Source: Lachnospiraceae bacterium
GTDB lineage: Bacteria > Bacillota > Clostridia > Lachnospirales > Lachnospiraceae
Assembly: GCA_028693165.1 (NCBI GenBank)
Contig: JAQUVX010000027.1
Coordinates: 1 to 51,955 of the forward strand
Reading direction: 5' to 3'
DNA length: 51,955 nucleotides
Positions 25,039 to 51,955 of this stretch are shown here, piece by piece; position 1 is the stretch's first letter, and each line of letters begins with the position of its first letter. The notes under the pieces are model-generated. The model worked only from the letters and a program-made list of their open reading frames with translations. It searched no databases and was not told where the DNA came from. The translations under genes were made by a program, and so were the position numbers.

Positions 25039-25067
25039 TTGCATCTAACCTGGAAATATGCTATTCT
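25039..25067 (+). promoter_or_regulatory. Promoter of Rpn-family gene A
   Basis: TTGCAT (25039-25044), 17 bases containing GGAAATAT, TATTCT (25062-25067). The promoter of Rpn gene B at 50226 has the same architecture and the same GGAAATAT in its spacer. Confidence 0.65.
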
Positions 25068-25073
25068 TTATAC

Positions 25074-25277
25074 AAAGCAGATTTTCTTTTGTAAGCATCT
25101 CTTTGATGAGAAAACACTTACAGCCCAAATTCAAAAATTCTATAACAGGTTCATATGATATGATGCCTGTTTCATTCAGAAAATTCCTGCTTTCTATTAC
25201 CCACATTCAGCAGGAAGATTCGAAAGAGAGACGTCGCTCATTGGCTTCCTGCAATACAATTGCATAAGGAGGAGCCA
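25074..25277 (+). ncRNA. Shared 5' leader with competing stems, copy A (upstream of Rpn-family gene A)
   Basis: About 200 untranslated bases between promoter and start. Four short blocks are conserved with the leader at 50262-50435. Block 1 is AAAGCAGATTTTCT (25074-25087), block 2 TTCCTGCT (25184-25191), block 3 AGCAGGAAG (25209-25217), block 4 CTTCCTGC (25245-25252). Block 1 can pair with block 2 (7 bp), block 2 with block 3 (8 bp), and block 3 with block 4 (8 bp), so pairings 1:2 plus 3:4 exclude 2:3. The ribosome binding site AAGGAGG (25266-25272) follows block 4 by 13 bases. A regulatory RNA is inferred; no known class was recognised. Confidence 0.5.
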
Positions 25278-26219
25278 ATGGCAGAGATACGGGATACAAA
25301 GCCCATGGAACAAGACAGGTCTCAAAAATATCTGGAGAATCATAATGATGTTTTTGCTGATATTGTCAACAACCTGGTGATCGGAGCACCGCTCATCCAT
25401 CCGATGGAGCTTGTTCCGGGACCAACCGAGACAGTTTATAAAATCGAAGGAAATACGGCATTCCGGGAACAGCGGAGAGATGTTAGTAAGTATTGGAGCA
25501 GACAGAACATTTTAGTTGCATTGCTTGGACTGGAAAATCAAACGGAAGAAGACCCAGATATGGGAATCCGTGTCCTGGGCTATGATTATGGAAGCTATTG
25601 ATACCAGATTGATACAGGAAAGGAGCGATATGGAGTCATATCCATTATCCTGTATTTTGGAAAAAAGCCCTGGAAAAGTGGAAGCTCCTTAAAAGAACGG
25701 ATTAAGGTGCCAAAGGAACTGGATCAGTTTGTAAGTGACTATAAATACATCTTAATTGATGTGCCAAGGCTTCCAGAACAGAAAAGGAGCAGGCTGACCA
25801 GCGATTTCAAGGTGATAGCAGATTTCTTTGCTGAAAAAGACAGAAAAAATTATAAGCCGTCCAGGCAGACCATAGTCCACGTGGAAGCGGTGCTTCATAT
25901 GCTTCAGGCTCTTACAAAGGACAAACGATATGAGATGATCGAAGAAGACATTATAAAAAGCATGGAAAAGGGGGAACCAATCAGTATGTGTGAATTTGCA
26001 GAGAAGATGGAACAAACAGGAATACGAAAAGGCGTTCGAACAGGAATGCGAACAGGTGTGAAAAAAGGCATAGATTCCTTTGCTGAACTGACCAGGCATC
26101 TGATTGCAGATTCCAGGATAGAGGATTTGAAGAAGGCCGCAGAGGATGAAGGGTTTCGTAAGACATTATATAAGGAATACAATATCCAGTTAGACTTGGA
26201 AGAGTCGGAAAGCATTTAA
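25278..26219 (+). pseudogene. Rpn/PD-(D/E)XK nuclease-transposase family gene A, interrupted by one TGA
   Basis: The reading frame runs 313 codons from ATG 25278 (AAGGAGG five bases upstream) to 26219, broken only by TGA at 25599-25601 (codon 108). Translation resumes in the same frame (YQIDTGKERYG...), so a single base change, for example CGA to TGA, explains it. The N-terminal half resembles Rpn-type PD-(D/E)XK nucleases: D68 in REQRRDVS and E86-N-Q88 in LLGLENQT would be catalytic residues. The C-terminal part has a helical region, repeats of the GIRKGVRTGMRTGVKKG kind and an acidic tail. Rpn proteins promote RecA-independent DNA exchange and occur in many divergent copies. Strain-specific mutation, readthrough or sequencing error cannot be separated here. 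Confidence 0.75.
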
Positions 26220-44139: not shown

Positions 44140-44799
44140 ATGAGATATTTGACGTTTGCGCTGGCGAAGGGCCGGCTGGCAAATAAATCCCTGGATATGT
44201 TTGAAAAGATCGGCATTACCTGCGAGGAGATGAAGGATAAGGATTCCAGAAAGCTCATTTTCACCAATGAAGAGCTGGGATACCGCTTCTTTCTCGCCAA
44301 GGCCAATGACGTGCCGACCTATGTGGAATACGGGGCAGCGGACATCGGAATCGTCGGAAAGGACACGATTCTTGAGGAGGGCCGCAAGCTCTATGAGGTA
44401 CTGGATCTTGGCATCGGACGCTGCCGGATGTGCGTGTGCGGACCGGAGTCAGCCAGAGATCTTTTGCAGCATCATGAGCTGATCCGTGTGGCGACCAAGT
44501 ATCCGGCCATCGCCAAGGATTATTTTTACAACAAGAAGCACCAGACCGTGGAGATCATCAAGCTGAACGGCTCCATCGAGCTGGCACCGATCGTCGGACT
44601 TTCCGAGGTGATCGTGGATATCGTGGAGACCGGCTCAACCCTGCGGGAGAACGGATTGACCGTGCTGGAAGAGGTGTGTCCTCTGTCTGCCCGCATGGTG
44701 GTCAATCAGGTCAGCATGAAGCGGGAGAATGAGCGCATCACGAAGATTATCCAGAACTTAAAAACGCTGATTCAGGCGCAGCAGGAGGCAGAACAATGA
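44140..44799 (+). CDS. hisG: ATP phosphoribosyltransferase, short form
   Basis: A 219-residue catalytic subunit that joins ATP and PRPP. The PRPP-binding segment [14 protein letters not shown] and the N-terminal [20 protein letters not shown] are typical. The C-terminal ACT-like regulatory domain of long HisG is missing, hence the need for HisZ encoded upstream. Its last four bases overlap the hisD start (ATGA), implying coupled translation. Confidence 0.95.
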
Positions 44800-46091
44800 G
44801 AATCATAAAATTAGATGAGCAGAGCCGGCAGAATATTCTGTCCGAGCTTTTAAAACGTGATCCGAACAATTACAGCAGCTACGAGGATACGGTTCACAAG
44901 ATCGTGGAGGATGTCCGCGCCAGAAGAGATGAGGCGGTCTTTGAATATACACGCAAATTCGACGGGGCAGAGTTAAATGCCTCCAATATCCGCGTGACCG
45001 AGGGTGAGATTCAGGAGGCGCTTTCCCAGGTGGAGCCGGCACTGCTGGCCGTGATGAAGCGCGCCATGAAAAATATCCGTGAATATCATGAGAAGCAGAA
45101 GCGCTACAGCTGGTTTGACAGCAAGCCGGACGGTACCATTCTGGGTCAGAAGGTGACACCGCTGGCCAGCGTCGGTGTCTATGTGCCGGGCGGCAAGGCC
45201 GCTTATCCGTCCTCCGTATTGATGAACATCATTCCGGCGGAGGTCGCAGGCGTTCCGAAGATTGTGATGGTGACGCCTCCGGGCAAGGATGGCAAAGTCA
45301 ATCCGGTAACCTTGATCGCGGCACATCTGGCAGGTGCAACCGAGGTTTATAAGGTGGGCGGCGCACAGGCTGTCGCGGCGCTGGCATTTGGAACCGAATC
45401 CATTCCGCGTGTGAACAAGATCGTGGGCCCGGGCAATATCTTCGTGGCACTGGCGAAAAAGGCGGTTTACGGACACGTGAGCATCGACAGTATCGCCGGA
45501 CCGAGCGAGATCCTGGTGCTGGCCGATGACAGTGCAAACCCGCGCTTTGTGGCGGCAGATCTGCTGTCCCAGGCGGAGCATGACGAACTGGCTTCCGCTA
45601 TCCTGGTGACCACCAGCATGGAGCTGGCAGAACAGGTTTCCAAAGAGGTGGAGGGCTTCGTGCAGACCCTTTCCAGAAAAGATATCCTGGAGAAATCTCT
45701 GGAAAATTACGGCTACATTCTGGTGGCGGATTCCATGGAAGATGCCATCGCCACCGCCAACGAGATCGCATCCGAGCATCTGGAGATCGTGACCCGCAAT
45801 CCATTTGAGGTCATGACCAAGATTCAGAATGCAGGAGCCATCTTCATGGGCGAGTATAGCTCCGAGCCGTTGGGAGATTACTTTGCAGGCCCGAATCACG
45901 TGCTTCCGACCAACGGAACAGCGAAGTTTTTCTCTCCGCTGAGTGTGGATGACTACATCAAAAAATCCAGCATCATCTATTATTCGAAGGAGGCGCTGGA
46001 GGCCGTGCATGAAGATATTGAGACCTTCGCAGAATCCGAGCATCTGACGGCACATGCCAATTCGATCCGGGTGCGTTTCGAAGATAAATAG
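44796..46091 (+). CDS. hisD: Histidinol dehydrogenase
   Basis: A 431-residue Zn-dependent enzyme oxidising histidinol to histidine in two NAD-linked steps, the last of the pathway. Family motifs present are [23 protein letters not shown], the signature [33 protein letters not shown], and [18 protein letters not shown] with the metal-binding and catalytic residues. The terminal [13 protein letters not shown] is also normal. Full family length; translationally coupled to hisG. Confidence 0.96.
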
Positions 46092-47539: not shown

Positions 47540-48835
47540 ATGTCAGAGTTTAAACGACTGATTGCAGGAATTGGCTGTAAAGAGGGAAAGGCCGTGTGGC
47601 TTACACAGACCGCCGGCACGCAGGAGGATCTGCTGAAGCTGGCCCATGCCTGCAATGACAACGGAGCCGACAGCCTGCTGATCTTTGATCAGTCTGAGAC
47701 GGATGAAGATCATGAGCGCTCGATCGGACTGATCAAGGAAGCGGCCAGGGAGATTGATATCCCGATCCTGACCGGCGGACGTGTGAAACGCCTGGAGGAT
47801 GTGAAGAAATATCTGTATGCCGGTGCCAAAGCCGTGTTTTTAGACGGCGGCAACGAGGATAATATTGATCTGATCAAGGAGGCATCCAGCCGATTCGGAA
47901 GTGAGAAGATCTATGTGACGATTTCTGATCTGGCACAGGCAAAGCGCATTCCGGAATTTGCACAGCTCGGTGCATCGGTTATGCTGGTGAAAAATATGCA
48001 GGAACAGGGGGCGCTGGCGGCGGAGGCATTTGCTCAGGAGGGGATTCCTTCTCTGATGGTATGTGACGAGGATTCGGAAAGCAGCATTGCATCCTGTATG
48101 GAGGCACAGGGATCGGTCGGTGTGATTCTGACGGTTCCGGAGGAGAGTGACGGCAGATATATGGAGCTGAAGCAGGCGCTTGGCAAGCGTGGGGAACCGG
48201 TGGATATTCTGCGCAGCAGCGTGTCCTGGGAGCACTTCAAGACGAATTGCGACGGCCTTGTTCCGGTCATTGTGCAGGACTTTAAAACCGCAGAGGTATT
48301 GATGCTTGCCTATATGAATGAGGAGGCATTCCTTGACACCCTGCGCACCGGAAAGATGCATTACTTCAGCCGCAGCCGTCAAAGCCAGTGGCAGAAAGGC
48401 GAGACCTCCGGACATTTCCAGTATGTGAAGTCTCTGCATTTAGACTGCGACAACGATACGATTCTGGCGAAGGTACACCAGATTGGTGCGGCCTGTCACA
48501 CAGGGTCGAGAAGCTGTTTCTTCCAGACGCTGGCCGAGAAGGAGTACAAAGAGACCAATCCGCTGAAGGTATTCGAGGATGTATTTGCGGTGATTCAGGA
48601 TCGGAAGCTTCATCCGAAGGAAGGCTCCTACACCAACTACCTCTTTGACAAGGGCATCGACAAGATCTTAAAGAAGGTCGGGGAAGAAGCAACTGAGATC
48701 GTCATTGCCGCCAAGAATCCGGATCCGGAGGAAATCAAATATGAGATTTCCGATTTCCTGTATCATGTGATGGTGCTGATGGCCGAGCGCGGCGTGAGCT
48801 GGGAAGAGATTACCGAGGAGCTGGCAAATCGTTAA
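47540..48835 (+). CDS. hisI: Degenerate HisF/HisA-like barrel fused to HisIE (phosphoribosyl-AMP cyclohydrolase/phosphoribosyl-ATP diphosphatase)
   Basis: A 431-residue three-part protein. Residues 1-225 resemble a HisF/HisA TIM barrel ([42 protein letters not shown]), but the first catalytic Asp is replaced by Gly12, and the second position aligns with Ser129. Residues 235-335 are HisI, the cyclohydrolase, with [18 protein letters not shown] and the zinc-binding DCDND and [10 protein letters not shown] segments intact. Residues 340-431 are HisE, with [15 protein letters not shown] and [10 protein letters not shown]. HisIE alone is about 200 residues, so the N-terminal barrel is an addition. 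AAAGGAG precedes the ATG. Last gene of the operon; no hisH or catalytic hisF is present in the window. Confidence 0.9.
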
Positions 48836-50225: not shown

Positions 50226-50254
50226 TTGCTTTCCGGAAATATTTGTGCTACAAT
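50226..50254 (+). promoter_or_regulatory. Promoter of Rpn-family gene B
   Basis: TTGCTT (50226-50231), 17 bases including GGAAATAT, TACAAT (50249-50254). Same arrangement as the promoter at 25039-25067. Confidence 0.65.
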
Positions 50255-50261
50255 AAATGCA

Positions 50262-50435
50262 AAAGCAGATTTTCTGATTTATCTTACACCCGGCTCGTCG
50301 AGCTTTGGGAGTATCTGAAGGTTATTTCATCTATTTCTAATGGAAAATTCCTGCTTACGATCACATCAAACAAAGCAGGAGTTTTCGGAAGAAATAGGAG
50401 GCTTCCTGCGACTACAATTGCACAGGGAGGTTTAC
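50262..50435 (+). ncRNA. Shared 5' leader with competing stems, copy B (upstream of Rpn-family gene B)
   Basis: Block 1 AAAGCAGATTTTCT (50262-50275) is identical to copy A. Block 2 TTCCTGCTT (50348-50356), block 3 AAAGCAGGA (50372-50380) and block 4 CTTCCTGC (50402-50409) match in order. Blocks 2 and 3 pair perfectly over eight bases; blocks 3 and 4 over six; blocks 1 and 2 over six (AAGCAG with CTGCTT). The 31 bases at 50400-50430, ending in the ribosome site, are nearly identical to 25243-25272. The segments between blocks are not conserved. Confidence 0.5.
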
Positions 50436-51371
50436 ATGAGTGTACCCGCAGAGAACAGGGAAGGGCTGCAGTGGCACCCGGCATTTTATGCCGGGATTCA
50501 GATTGAACTGGAACAGGAGACAGACCGGCTGACGTTTGAGAACGAACATCAGCTCGGGACGAAGCCGAAGGAGGTCGACGTGCTCATTATAAAAAAGAAC
50601 GCGGATCAGCCGATTGAGAAGAACATCGGTCGTATTTTTCGAAAGCACAACCTTGTGGAATATAAGAGTCCGACCGATTATTTGAGCATCGATGATTTTT
50701 ACAAAGTATATGGTTATGCGTGCTTTTATAAATCGGACACAAAGACGATCAATGAGATTCCGATTGAGGATCTGACGATCACGTATGTCAGCAGCCATCG
50801 TCCACGCGAATTACTGAAGCATCTGCACGAGCGTGGATATCAGATTTCGCAGGCGGAGGCAGGCATTTATTATATCGAGGCTGCGGCGGATTTGCAGCAG
50901 ATTCCGATGCAGCTGGTCATCCTGACGGAGTTGTCGGCGGCAGACAATTTGTGGCTGAAAAGCCTGTCCAATGACATCCGGGATGCCGGCCAGATTCAAA
51001 AGCTGTCCAGCGAATATGGGAAATACAAAGATCAGAATTTATACCAGTCGGTTATGAATGTCATTATTCGGGCAAACAAGGAGAAGTTTAAGGAGGAAAA
51101 GAACGTGTGCGAGGCATTGAGAGAATTGTTCCAGGATGAGTTGAGTGAGGGCGAGAGTAAAGGGAAAATCGAAGGAAAAATTGAAGGAGAGGAACTGAAA
51201 GTGATTGATTTGATCCTCAGCAAGCTGAAGAAAAATCTAGATGTAAAAACGATTGAAGATCATCTGGAGGACTCGACAGGACGCGTGCAGGCGATCGTGG
51301 ATTTGAAGAAGCAGCATCCGGAGGCAGACAGGGAGGCATTGTACGAAATGCTGCATGCATCTGATGTATAA
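50436..51371 (+). CDS. Rpn/PD-(D/E)XK nuclease-like protein, gene B
   Basis: A 311-residue protein with an N-terminal PD-(D/E)XK-like core: D48 in KEVDVLIIKK and E75-x-K77 in LVEYKSPTDYLSIDDFYKVYGYA. The middle is mixed alpha/beta. The C-terminal third is charged and helical, with a GKIEGKIEGE repeat at about 245-254 like the repeats of Rpn-type proteins. It does not align over its length with gene A, and its catalytic pattern differs (ExK versus ExQ), but promoter and leader are shared. GGGAGG lies before ATG 50436. Annotated relatives are called putative transposases or nucleases; the role is unknown. Confidence 0.75.
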   Translation: MSVPAENREGLQWHPAFYAGIQIELEQETDRLTFENEHQLGTKPKEVDVLIIKKNADQPIEKNIGRIFRKHNLVEYKSPTDYLSIDDFYKVYGYACFYKSDTKTINEIPIEDLTITYVSSHRPRELLKHLHERGYQISQAEAGIYYIEAAADLQQIPMQLVILTELSAADNLWLKSLSNDIRDAGQIQKLSSEYGKYKDQNLYQSVMNVIIRANKEKFKEEKNVCEALRELFQDELSEGESKGKIEGKIEGEELKVIDLILSKLKKNLDVKTIEDHLEDSTGRVQAIVDLKKQHPEADREALYEMLHASDV

Positions 51372-51480: not shown

Positions 51481-51955
51481 GTGCGCCTGGCGGCGCACGT
51501 TTCTAGGCAGTAAAGTCTGCGTAATCCGCCCGGTAGTGGGAAGGATATAGCCGAAAGCAAGGGTGTCCATCGTGAGGTGGAATCTGAAGGAAGCTGGATG
51601 TGAGGAACATACTAACTCACGGGCGAATCTCTGGTCTGACGAACAGAAACCACATATGAGGCTATTCATGAGGGTAAGGCTGCATATCAAGTCGAAGCCC
51701 AATAACTACACGGAATCATGGATGGTAGATGTGGCAGATAGATGGAGAGGAAAGAAACGTGTGGTACCCAGGGAGGTCTGTATGAAACGCTCTGAAAGGA
51801 GTAACCACGGTCGCAAGGCGGTGCTGAACATACAGAAGTCAGCAGAGGTCATAGTGTGCGACTTGAAAGTCGCTGTTTTAATTGCAGAAATGCTACCACT
51901 TCTTTCTTGTGGTATTCCTACCGATAAGTGCCTAGTAAGAAATGAATGGTGCAAA
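51481..51955 (+). mobile_element. Group II intron, 5' part (class C-like), cut by window end
   Basis: The intron begins with GTGCG at 51481. Signature parts of the domain I-III RNA are readable: GCAAGGGTGTCCATCGTGAG, GGAATCTGAAGGAAGC, ACATATGAGGCTA, TACCCAGGGAGGTCTG, and AGAAGTCAGCAGAGGTCATAGT, in the order found in bacterial class C introns. Position directly after a terminator hairpin is the known target preference of class C. The reverse-transcriptase gene of domain IV and domains V-VI lie beyond the window. An open frame from ATG 51890 may be the start of that protein, but 22 codons are too few to judge. Confidence 0.85.

What the first reader, a model, noticed from the sequence alone, without database searches (positions are those of the whole stretch)
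25039..25277. Two distant Rpn-family genes share a promoter and a leader able to form mutually exclusive stems
Seen: the regions 25039-25277 and 50226-50435, 25 kb apart, share a TTGC-N19-TA promoter with GGAAATAT in the spacer, an identical AAAGCAGATTTTCT near the predicted transcript start, GAAAATTCCTGCTT, AGCAGGA, and a final 30-base block GGCTTCCTGC...ACAATTGCA...GGAGG. The order is 1 (GCAG), 2 (CTGC), 3 (GCAGG), 4 (CCTGC), so 1:2 plus 3:4 competes with 2:3, as in attenuators. The coding sequences that follow are far more diverged than the leaders, and the loops between blocks are not conserved. Inference: a cis-regulatory RNA, or an element recognised by the encoded protein, that travels with this nuclease/transposase family. 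It is not a class I know.
Basis: partly seen in the sequence, partly recalled or inferred. Interest (0 to 1): 0.78.

Follow-up and report, generated by a model that had tools for sequence, protein, structure and literature searches.

The report
Folding RNA switch before nuclease genes
A stretch of RNA at the front of a group of bacterial nuclease-like genes can fold in two mutually exclusive ways, one of which is predicted to hide the signal for starting protein synthesis, and it recurs across one family of bacteria, so it looks like an undescribed on/off control for these potentially toxic, defence-like proteins.

Summary
The leader occurs 16 times in this genome, each time before an Rpn-type or PD-(D/E)XK-like gene or remnant, and in 86 of 397 genomes sampled from its family, Lachnospiraceae; a phylum-wide sample gave only chance-level hits. 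In a second batch fetched after the models were fixed, 54 of 56 precede such genes by a strict test. Block 1 lies at the predicted transcript start and covaries with block 2: the two best of 2,775 column pairs are 1:2 pairs (E 0.04, 0.12 against a tree-based null). Blocks 2:3, 3:4 and 4:Shine-Dalgarno also fit their own partners better than swapped ones, though 3:4 covaries weakly. Predicted folding is a relay: 1:2 first, then 2:3, after which block 4 can cover the Shine-Dalgarno. No Rfam match in the window or seven loci. Best reading: a new cis-acting translational switch, default OFF, on toxin-like nuclease genes. The trigger is unknown; leaders resemble each other within genomes across protein families, so a shared trans-acting factor is plausible.

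The parts
25039..25067 (+). Promoter of copy 1: TTGCAT, 17 bases, TATTCT
   Evidence: Sequence. In 68 of 85 first-batch leaders with a recognisable -10, AAAGCA starts 5-7 bases after it, so block 1 is at the predicted transcript start.
25074..25087 (+). Block 1, copy 1 (AAAGCAGATTTTCT)
   Evidence: Covaries with block 2; second batch
25088..25178 (+). Region between blocks 1 and 2; holds one (A/U)UCU(A/G) motif, at 25138
   Evidence: Motif enriched in this region of 69 leaders and of 48 second-batch leaders; this copy has one
25179..25192 (+). Block 2, copy 1 (GAAAATTCCTGCTT), partner of block 1 or block 3
25209..25222 (+). Block 3, copy 1 (AGCAGGAAGATTCG), partner of block 2 or block 4
25243..25252 (+). 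Block 4, copy 1 (GGCTTCCTGC), anti-Shine-Dalgarno, partner of block 3 or the SD
25266..25274 (+). Shine-Dalgarno sequence (AAGGAGGAG) of the copy 1 gene
   Evidence: over all leaders folded, SD at most half unpaired in the minimum-energy fold of 66 of 67
25278..26219 (+). Rpn-type gene, broken by an in-frame TGA at 25599-25601; candidate internal start ATG at 25986
   Evidence: paralogues match Transposase_31 or TIGR01784
50226..50254 (+). Promoter of copy 2: TTGCTT, 17 bases, TACAAT
50262..50275 (+). Block 1, copy 2
50276..50342 (+). Region between blocks 1 and 2, copy 2; (A/U)UCU(A/G) motifs at 50313, 50329, 50335
50343..50356 (+). Block 2, copy 2
50372..50386 (+). Block 3, copy 2 (AAAGCAGGAGTTTTC)
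50400..50409 (+). Block 4, copy 2 (GGCTTCCTGC), anti-Shine-Dalgarno
50424..50430 (+). Shine-Dalgarno sequence (AGGGAGG) of the copy 2 gene
50436..51371 (+). PD-(D/E)XK-like gene of Rpn type, 311 aa, with KIEG-type repeats and a candidate internal start GTG at 51105 behind AAGGAGG

Best explanation
It is a cis-acting RNA switch in the 5' leader of Rpn-type and related PD-(D/E)XK-like genes that controls translation initiation of the full-length protein. Block 1, at the 5' end, pairs with block 2 as soon as block 2 is made. Block 3 then competes for block 2. When 2:3 wins, which is the more stable end state, block 4 is free to cover the Shine-Dalgarno sequence and the gene is OFF. When 1:2 is held, block 3 instead captures block 4, the Shine-Dalgarno is released and the gene is ON. 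Shown by computation: recurrence, gene association, covariation (strong for 1:2 and 2:3, weak for 3:4), predicted folding order, predicted occlusion. Inferred: that this controls translation in the cell, that OFF is the default, that a factor binding the 1-2 region (UCU motifs) or the timing of transcription decides, and that the purpose is to hold down a toxic full-length protein while an internal start still makes a short, antitoxin-like C-terminal product.
For: Recurrence: 51 of 299 family genomes with model R1, 86 of 397 with R2, 16 copies in this genome. Second batch: 56 of 56 have an Rpn-like match downstream with masking off, 54 of 56 with N-terminal queries and masking on. Diagnostic 1:2 pair standard in 81 of 92 first-batch leaders (46.0 expected, max 62 in 5,000 permutations) and in 47 of 48 second-batch ones (39.8 expected, max 46). 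Covariation against a tree-based null: the best two of 2,775 pairs are 1:2 (E 0.04, 0.12; 107 sequences); on the model-based alignment the best four are two 2:3 and two 1:2 pairs (E 0.000, 0.017, 0.083, 0.10; 76 sequences). Parsimony gives 8 pair-keeping double changes at the diagnostic pair, against 10 losses. That block 2 base fits block 1 in 97 of 107 but the opposing block 3 base in 25 of 107, so it is held by 1:2, not by 2:3. Own partners pair better than permuted ones for 1:2, 2:3, 3:4 and 4:SD (0 of 2,000 permutations each); non-partner controls 1:3 and 1:SD reach it in 1,412 and 1,360. Folding: RNA ending after block 2, mean P(1:2) 0.95; after block 3, mean P(2:3) 0.91; full leader 0.95 (69 leaders). 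SD at most half unpaired in the MFE of 66 of 67; the forced 1:2+3:4 state frees at least half of it in 50 of 67. Placement from promoter to start codon.
Against: SD occlusion alone is weak: leaders letter-shuffled in front of the same SD are also at most half unpaired in 296 of 345 (mean unpaired 0.29 against 0.14). The ON state lies a median 12.5 kcal/mol above the minimum, too far to be populated without a bound factor or kinetic trapping. 3:4 covaries weakly: its best in-register pair has E 8.5, and no in-register 3:4 pair is among the 30 listed; parsimony at its most variable pair gives 4 double changes against 7 losses. 4:SD hardly varies. The swap test does not remove relatedness. In one search the third-ranked pair (E 0.79) lies inside block 2, probably a misalignment, and at least two rows (L008 block 1, L287 block 2) are misplaced by the script. 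The second batch is mostly T-A at the diagnostic pair, so 47 of 48 says less than it seems. No transcript, probing or reporter data were available. 311 of 397 family genomes showed no match at E <= 0.001; only 9 candidates per genome were scored, so this is no proof of absence.
Confidence: 0.72

Rival explanations
1. A ligand- or protein-sensing switch: the region enclosed by 1:2 is an aptamer or RNA-binding-protein site, and binding holds 1:2 and so turns the gene ON. A special case of the best explanation with a named kind of trigger.
For: (A/U)UCU(A/G) motifs enriched in the 1-2 region (104 against 33.1, max 50 in 200 shuffles) and not in the two other spacers (2 against 2.1, 1 against 2.0); more unpaired than the region as a whole, 0.69 against 0.50. 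The motif was chosen after seeing the first batch, but holds in 48 second-batch leaders: 73 against 25.6, max 38. The ON state needs outside help. Leaders are alike within a genome across protein families: nearest leader in the same genome 31 of 80 (expected 1.5), label permutation 0 of 2,000.
Against: The 1-2 region varies in length, 34 to 136 bases as measured (the longest are probably misplaced starts), and shows no covarying aptamer core or 72 (most of it was not in those alignments). Leader exchange between paralogues would also make leaders alike within a genome.
Confidence: 0.4
2. A purely kinetic device: 1:2 delays 2:3, so translation is possible only for a short time on nascent RNA, or is barred until the RNA is finished, as with metastable hairpins of type I toxin mRNAs.
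For: Predicted 1:2 above 0.5 in RNA ending after block 2 in 66 of 69, and 2:3 above 0.5 after block 3 in 65 of 69 leaders; large energy gap to the ON state; precedent in AapA3 (PMC6733600, passages seen).
Against: Equilibrium predictions on truncated RNA are not kinetics. Does not explain the UCU motifs.
Confidence: 0.35
3. A ribosome-dependent or transcriptional attenuator of the trp type, with a leader peptide and a terminator.
For: Four ordered, mutually exclusive blocks.
Against: SD plus start ahead of block 2 in 1 of 69 leaders; a T-run of 5 or more after block 3 in 8 of 107.
Confidence: 0.04
4. A DNA site (operator or transposon end) recognised by the encoded nuclease, not an RNA.
Against: The best-supported covarying pair joins blocks separated by a variable stretch; the 2:3 palindrome carries an A-G mismatch in 73 of 107; 12 protein groups share it; the nearest leader is in the same genome in 31 of 80 against 1.5 expected.
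Confidence: 0.06

Closest known systems
Type I toxin mRNAs with metastable hairpins (hok/Sok; AapA3/IsoA3, PMC6733600, passages seen)
   Same: SD-sequestering alternative hairpins on the mRNA of a toxin, formed in order during transcription, so that toxin synthesis is held back.
   Different: Here all partners lie in the 5' leader; the genes encode proteins of about 300 residues, not small peptides (recalled for type I); no antisense RNA was looked for; the element is shared by 12 protein groups.
Translational attenuators and SD-sequestering riboswitches (recalled)
   Same: Antisequestrator/sequestrator logic: block 3 can take block 4 away from the SD.
   Different: Leader peptide in at most 1 of 69, no Rfam match in what was searched, no known ligand, and a 5'-terminal block that starts a relay.
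Rpn toxin-antitoxin genes of E. coli (PMC10327210, abstract, introduction and passages seen; PMC5350276, abstract start in a listing and a six-term search with no occurrence)
   Same: PD-(D/E)XK-type nuclease genes with a variable, repeat-bearing C-terminus and an internal translation start (compare).
   Different: The words 'leader' and 'untranslated' do not occur in the held main texts. [quoted passage not shown]
trp-type transcription attenuator (recalled)
   Same: Order of four blocks with two exclusive pairings.
   Different: No conserved U-run, hardly any leader peptide; the predicted target is the SD.

Membership tests
Known Rfam RNA family | Match at or near a family's gathering score over the leader | tested here: not met
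   Window at gathering scores: only two group II intron hits. Permissive E <= 1 on 7 loci: nothing overlapping a leader; weak SpF25 hits at L003:1324-1432 (29.5 and 28.2 bits against 48) lie upstream of the promoter. The other loci were not scanned.
trp-type transcription attenuator | Leader peptide with SD ahead of block 2 | tested here: not met
   1 of 69 leaders
trp-type transcription attenuator | Terminator hairpin followed by a U-run | tested here: not met
   T-run of 5 or more in 8 of 107
Translational switch with SD sequestration (mechanism class) | Mutually exclusive helices supported by covariation | tested here: met
   1:2 and 2:3, which share block 2. Support for 3:4 is weak
Translational switch with SD sequestration (mechanism class) | SD hidden in one state and free in the other | tested here: inconclusive
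   66 of 67 hidden, 50 of 67 free in the forced state, but 296 of 345 shuffled controls also hide it
Riboswitch | Direct ligand binding by a conserved aptamer | not testable with these tools
   The 1-2 region varies in length; no binding data
Type I toxin-antitoxin mRNA | Antisense RNA to the toxin mRNA | not tested
   No transcript data; antisense promoters not scanned
Rpn family (genes) | Match to TIGR01784, Transposase_31 or PDDEXK_2 | tested here: inconclusive
   31, 10 and 12 of 82 proteins at E <= 0.001: met for those. In the largest group 8 of 19 sampled match TIGR01784 at E <= 0.01 and none a nuclease Pfam model; in the 50 kb gene's group 4 of 18, the 50 kb protein itself none. Repeats may inflate these: FliH models match too
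Rpn toxin-antitoxin (gene within gene) | Internal SD and start before the variable C-terminus | tested here: met
   50 of 66 genes (72 sites) against 34.5 genes (max 44; sites 51.7, max 67) in 100 synonymous-codon shuffles; upstream part of the genes 25 sites against 20.4 (max 30). The 66 include close relatives
Rpn toxin-antitoxin (gene within gene) | Toxicity of the long and neutralisation by the short product | not testable with these tools
   Needs expression assays

The most novel reading that the evidence does not exclude
One RNA switch, read by one trans-acting factor or one physiological cue per cell, controls a whole arsenal of Rpn-type nuclease toxins, a dozen long open genes among 16 copies in this genome. 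It gates only the upstream start, so it sets the ratio of full-length toxin to internally started antitoxin, and could arm all of them at once, for instance on phage infection.
Probability: 0.25. Interest if true: 0.9.

Novelty: new variant of a known kind. Interest (0 to 1): 0.8.

Why it matters
Rpn proteins are reported as broadly distributed anti-phage toxin-antitoxin genes whose long and short products vary in level for unknown reasons (PMC10327210). A structured leader shared by many such genes in one bacterial family gives a concrete, testable control point, and a handle on how a cell keeps a dozen potentially toxic nucleases in check. A relay of four blocks plus the SD, with both exclusive pairings of block 2 covarying, is also a good natural test case for co-transcriptional RNA folding. 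I found no published description in the held library (open-licence PubMed Central only): 'candidate structured RNAs' + 'transposase_31' (0 papers), 'RNA motif' + 'Lachnospiraceae' + 'cis-regulatory RNA', two of 'Rpn family', 'putative transposase', 'riboswitch' (28 papers, 15 listed, none on this by title and start of abstract; 13 not seen), 'PDDEXK_2' + 'Lachnospiraceae', 'Rpn' + 'recombination-promoting nuclease' (19 listed; two opened).

Tried and rejected
For the 50 kb protein family, Pfam and solved-structure searches gave nothing useful. The AlphaFold model of the 50 kb protein is poor (mean pLDDT 52.3, three sequences) and the fold search uninformative (no match with E <= 0.001); the order of strands and helices merely agrees with PD-(D/E)XK (my reading). 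Profile-profile comparisons reach beyond the repeat-rich C-terminus only in part. PADLOC gave scattered weak hits. Leader-peptide and terminator models rejected. The forced-state energies in the second part used a constraint that did not hold and are not used; one search replaces them. The clustering script failed on a tblastn option; one search replaced it, but its 88-member cluster was joined partly through repeats: with N-terminal queries and masking it splits into 37, 17, 17 and 16. The dinucleotide shuffle drafted was not used; its control is a mononucleotide shuffle. An exact leader pattern in viral contigs gave 0; one viral-contig locus, L333, has a leader-like stretch (21.6 bits, E 0.003) in front of a cut Rpn-like fragment. 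The four non-family genomes with weak hits were read by eye and judged terminators or unrelated repeats.

Rows dropped or misplaced. One search covered 100 sources, not all held loci (L204 and L225 left out); 92 of 94 above the score cut, with block 1 visibly misplaced in several own-genome rows. One search dropped 3 own-genome rows for that reason. One search lost 7 of 76, 2 of 69. One search used 129 of 150 (dropped: 7 without block 1, 3 without block 4, 9 without SD, 1 without block 3, 1 without block 2), then 107 nonredundant; of 56, 1 without block 2, 1 below the cut and 6 near-duplicates were left out of the pair count; one of the duplicates (L283) is the same sequence as model member L039, so 55 of 56 are truly new to the models, and some others are close relatives.

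Full report
Observation. The two leaders are as described. Both run from a promoter with a 17-base spacer through four blocks to a Shine-Dalgarno (SD) sequence and ATG. Copy 1 leads into a gene broken by an in-frame TGA (25599-25601); copy 2 into an open 311-residue gene. An ordered pattern for blocks 2-3-4 hits the 3.6 Mb genome exactly twice, and zero times reversed. A looser DNA search showed further copies, and reading them revealed the same leader before three unlike protein families.

Spread. A covariance model from 16 sequences (R1) found the element in 51 of 299 genomes of the family; a model from 83 sequences (R2) in 86 of 397 (79 of 334 genera). In these large searches only 12 or 9 candidates per genome were scored, so the counts are lower bounds. 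In a phylum-wide sample 5 of 398 genomes matched at E <= 0.01, one of them this genome; the other four are what chance would give, and reading them showed unrelated repeats. The family is Lachnospiraceae: a contig of handle genome G728, given as same family, has the length (330,473 bases) and the leader of a contig titled 'Lachnospiraceae bacterium NC2008'. In this genome R2 finds 16 copies; all stand before Rpn-type or PD-(D/E)XK-like genes or remnants, 12 with an open frame of 294 codons or more. By comparison of coordinates 8 of 13 TIGR01784 matches in the genome carry it, so it is common but not universal.

Company. The first batch has 112 elements. With repeats left in, 88 stand before one tblastn-linked cluster. 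With N-terminal queries and masking the same data give four clusters of 37, 17, 17 and 16 (87 in all), two of 3, and 19 that stand alone. Of those, several are cut by a contig end or are remnants by eye; a few look false (phosphoglycerate mutase L190, glycerol kinase L195); L224 reads as an AAA-ATPase-like protein. In the second batch 56 of 56 have an Rpn-like match downstream on the same strand with masking off and 54 of 56 by the stricter test; of the other two, L304 has a short remnant and L309 belongs to one of the small families. Of the 82 first-batch proteins of 140 residues or more, 31 match TIGR01784, 12 PDDEXK_2 and 10 Transposase_31. The largest group ('KYKDTLFRMLF', 8 of 19 sampled match TIGR01784 at E <= 0.01) and the 50 kb gene's group (4 of 18) are thus Rpn-like by weaker evidence, and repeats may help those matches. 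By normalised BLAST scores the 124 longer proteins of both batches fall into 12 groups. So the leader is a module before several nuclease-like families, not the property of one.

Structure. Block 1 begins 5-7 bases after the -10 hexamer in 68 of 85 leaders, at the expected transcript start. The base after GCA in block 1 and the base before TGC in block 2 form standard pairs in 81 of 92 first-batch leaders (T-A 49, G-C 14, A-T 9, G-T 5, T-G 4), against 46.0 expected and at most 62 in 5,000 permutations; in the second batch in 47 of 48 nonredundant ones against 39.8 expected, at most 46, since T-A dominates there. I wrote a simplified R-scape-like test (G statistic with average-product correction, null alignments simulated on a FastTree tree). 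On windows anchored by sequence motifs only (107 nonredundant), the two best of 2,775 pairs are both 1:2 pairs of one register (E 0.04 and 0.12). The third is inside block 2 and probably a misalignment; two 2:3 pairs follow (E 3.7). On the model-based alignment, which leans towards 2:3, the best four are two 2:3 and two 1:2 pairs (E 0.000 to 0.10). Parsimony counts 8 pair-keeping double changes at the diagnostic 1:2 pair against 10 losses, and 4 against 7 at the variable 3:4 pair. The diagnostic block 2 base fits block 1 in 97 of 107 and the opposing block 3 base in 25 of 107: 1:2 is selected in its own right, and 2:3 tolerates a mismatch there. 3:4 has no strong covariation: best in-register E 8.5, none among the 30 listed. 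Duplex energies of own against permuted partners agree for 1:2, 2:3, 3:4 and 4:SD (0 of 2,000 each), with flat controls for 1:3 and 1:SD; relatedness is not removed in that test, so the tree-based tests weigh more.

Folding. On 69 leaders the equilibrium prediction for RNA that ends just after block 2 is 1:2 (mean 0.95), after block 3 is 2:3 (0.91), and for the full leader 2:3 (0.95). In the full minimum-energy fold the SD is at most half unpaired in 66 of 67, but so it is in 296 of 345 shuffled leaders (mean unpaired 0.14 against 0.29), so occlusion by itself is weak evidence. Forcing 1:2 and 3:4 frees at least half of the SD in 50 of 67 at a median cost of 12.5 kcal/mol. The alternative state therefore needs a bound factor or kinetic trapping. 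No conserved U-run follows 2:3, and an SD plus start ahead of block 2 is present in 1 of 69; trp-type attenuation is unlikely.

A possible input. The stretch between blocks 1 and 2 is enriched in (A/U)UCU(A/G): 104 against 33.1 expected (max 50 in 200 shuffles), with no enrichment in the two other spacers, and the motif is more unpaired than its surroundings. The motif was picked from the same leaders; in 48 second-batch leaders it is again enriched, 73 against 25.6, max 38. Leaders resemble each other within a genome across protein families: without the window's genome, mean identity 0.681 over 47 pairs against 0.650 when genome labels are permuted within families (0 of 2,000). Composition does not explain it (0.584 against 0.591 for letter-shuffled leaders). 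The nearest leader is in the same genome in 31 of 80 (expected 1.5) and of the same protein family in 41 (expected 19.5). Either leaders are exchanged between paralogues, or they follow a factor of the host; these cannot be told apart here. In this genome, paralogous units share homology from near the -35 box to about the stop codon, while different families share only the leader and its edges.

The genes. Many of these proteins end in EG-rich, tetrapeptide-like repeats and a variable tail. An in-frame start behind an SD lies 40-170 codons before the end in 50 of 66 genes, against 34.5 (max 44) in synonymous shuffles, and without enrichment in the upstream part (the 66 include close relatives). 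This matches what the E. coli work describes as RpnL and RpnS (PMC10327210). The leader would then gate only the toxin start; this step is inference.

Known or new. No Rfam family matches in the window or the seven loci scanned. The held literature gave nothing on such a leader. The closest working analogue found is the metastable hairpins of type I toxin mRNAs (PMC6733600). I call it a new RNA class built on a known principle, hence a new variant of a known kind.

Noticed in passing
window 51566-51862: Group II intron domains (RF02001, RF01998) downstream of the 50 kb gene, close to the window's end.
   Followed up: no
window 47540-48835: One ORF joins a HisA-like domain with PRA-CH and PRA-PH; histidinol dehydrogenase lies at 44796-46091.
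   Followed up: no
L193:245-339 and L193:1484-1580: Two leaders in a row before two different genes; the second belongs to a small protein family of unknown function also behind leaders at L146 and L208.
   Followed up: partly
L161 (G000 C18): Two similar units (promoter, leader, gene) in tandem in the window's genome.
   Followed up: partly
L010 (G000 C26, about 170.1 kb): A decayed copy keeps blocks 1 and 2 and part of block 3 but seems to have lost block 4 and the SD; its gene is truncated.
   Followed up: no
L093:391-659: A T-box-like match just under its gathering score (91.4 against 93 bits), not overlapping the leader.
   Followed up: no
loop between blocks 2 and 3, 69 leaders: Six adjacent loop positions have G in at most 1 of 69 leaders; a UC(A/C)(C/A)A or UCCA motif is in 50 of 69 against a mean fraction of 0.48 in shuffled loops.
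   Followed up: partly
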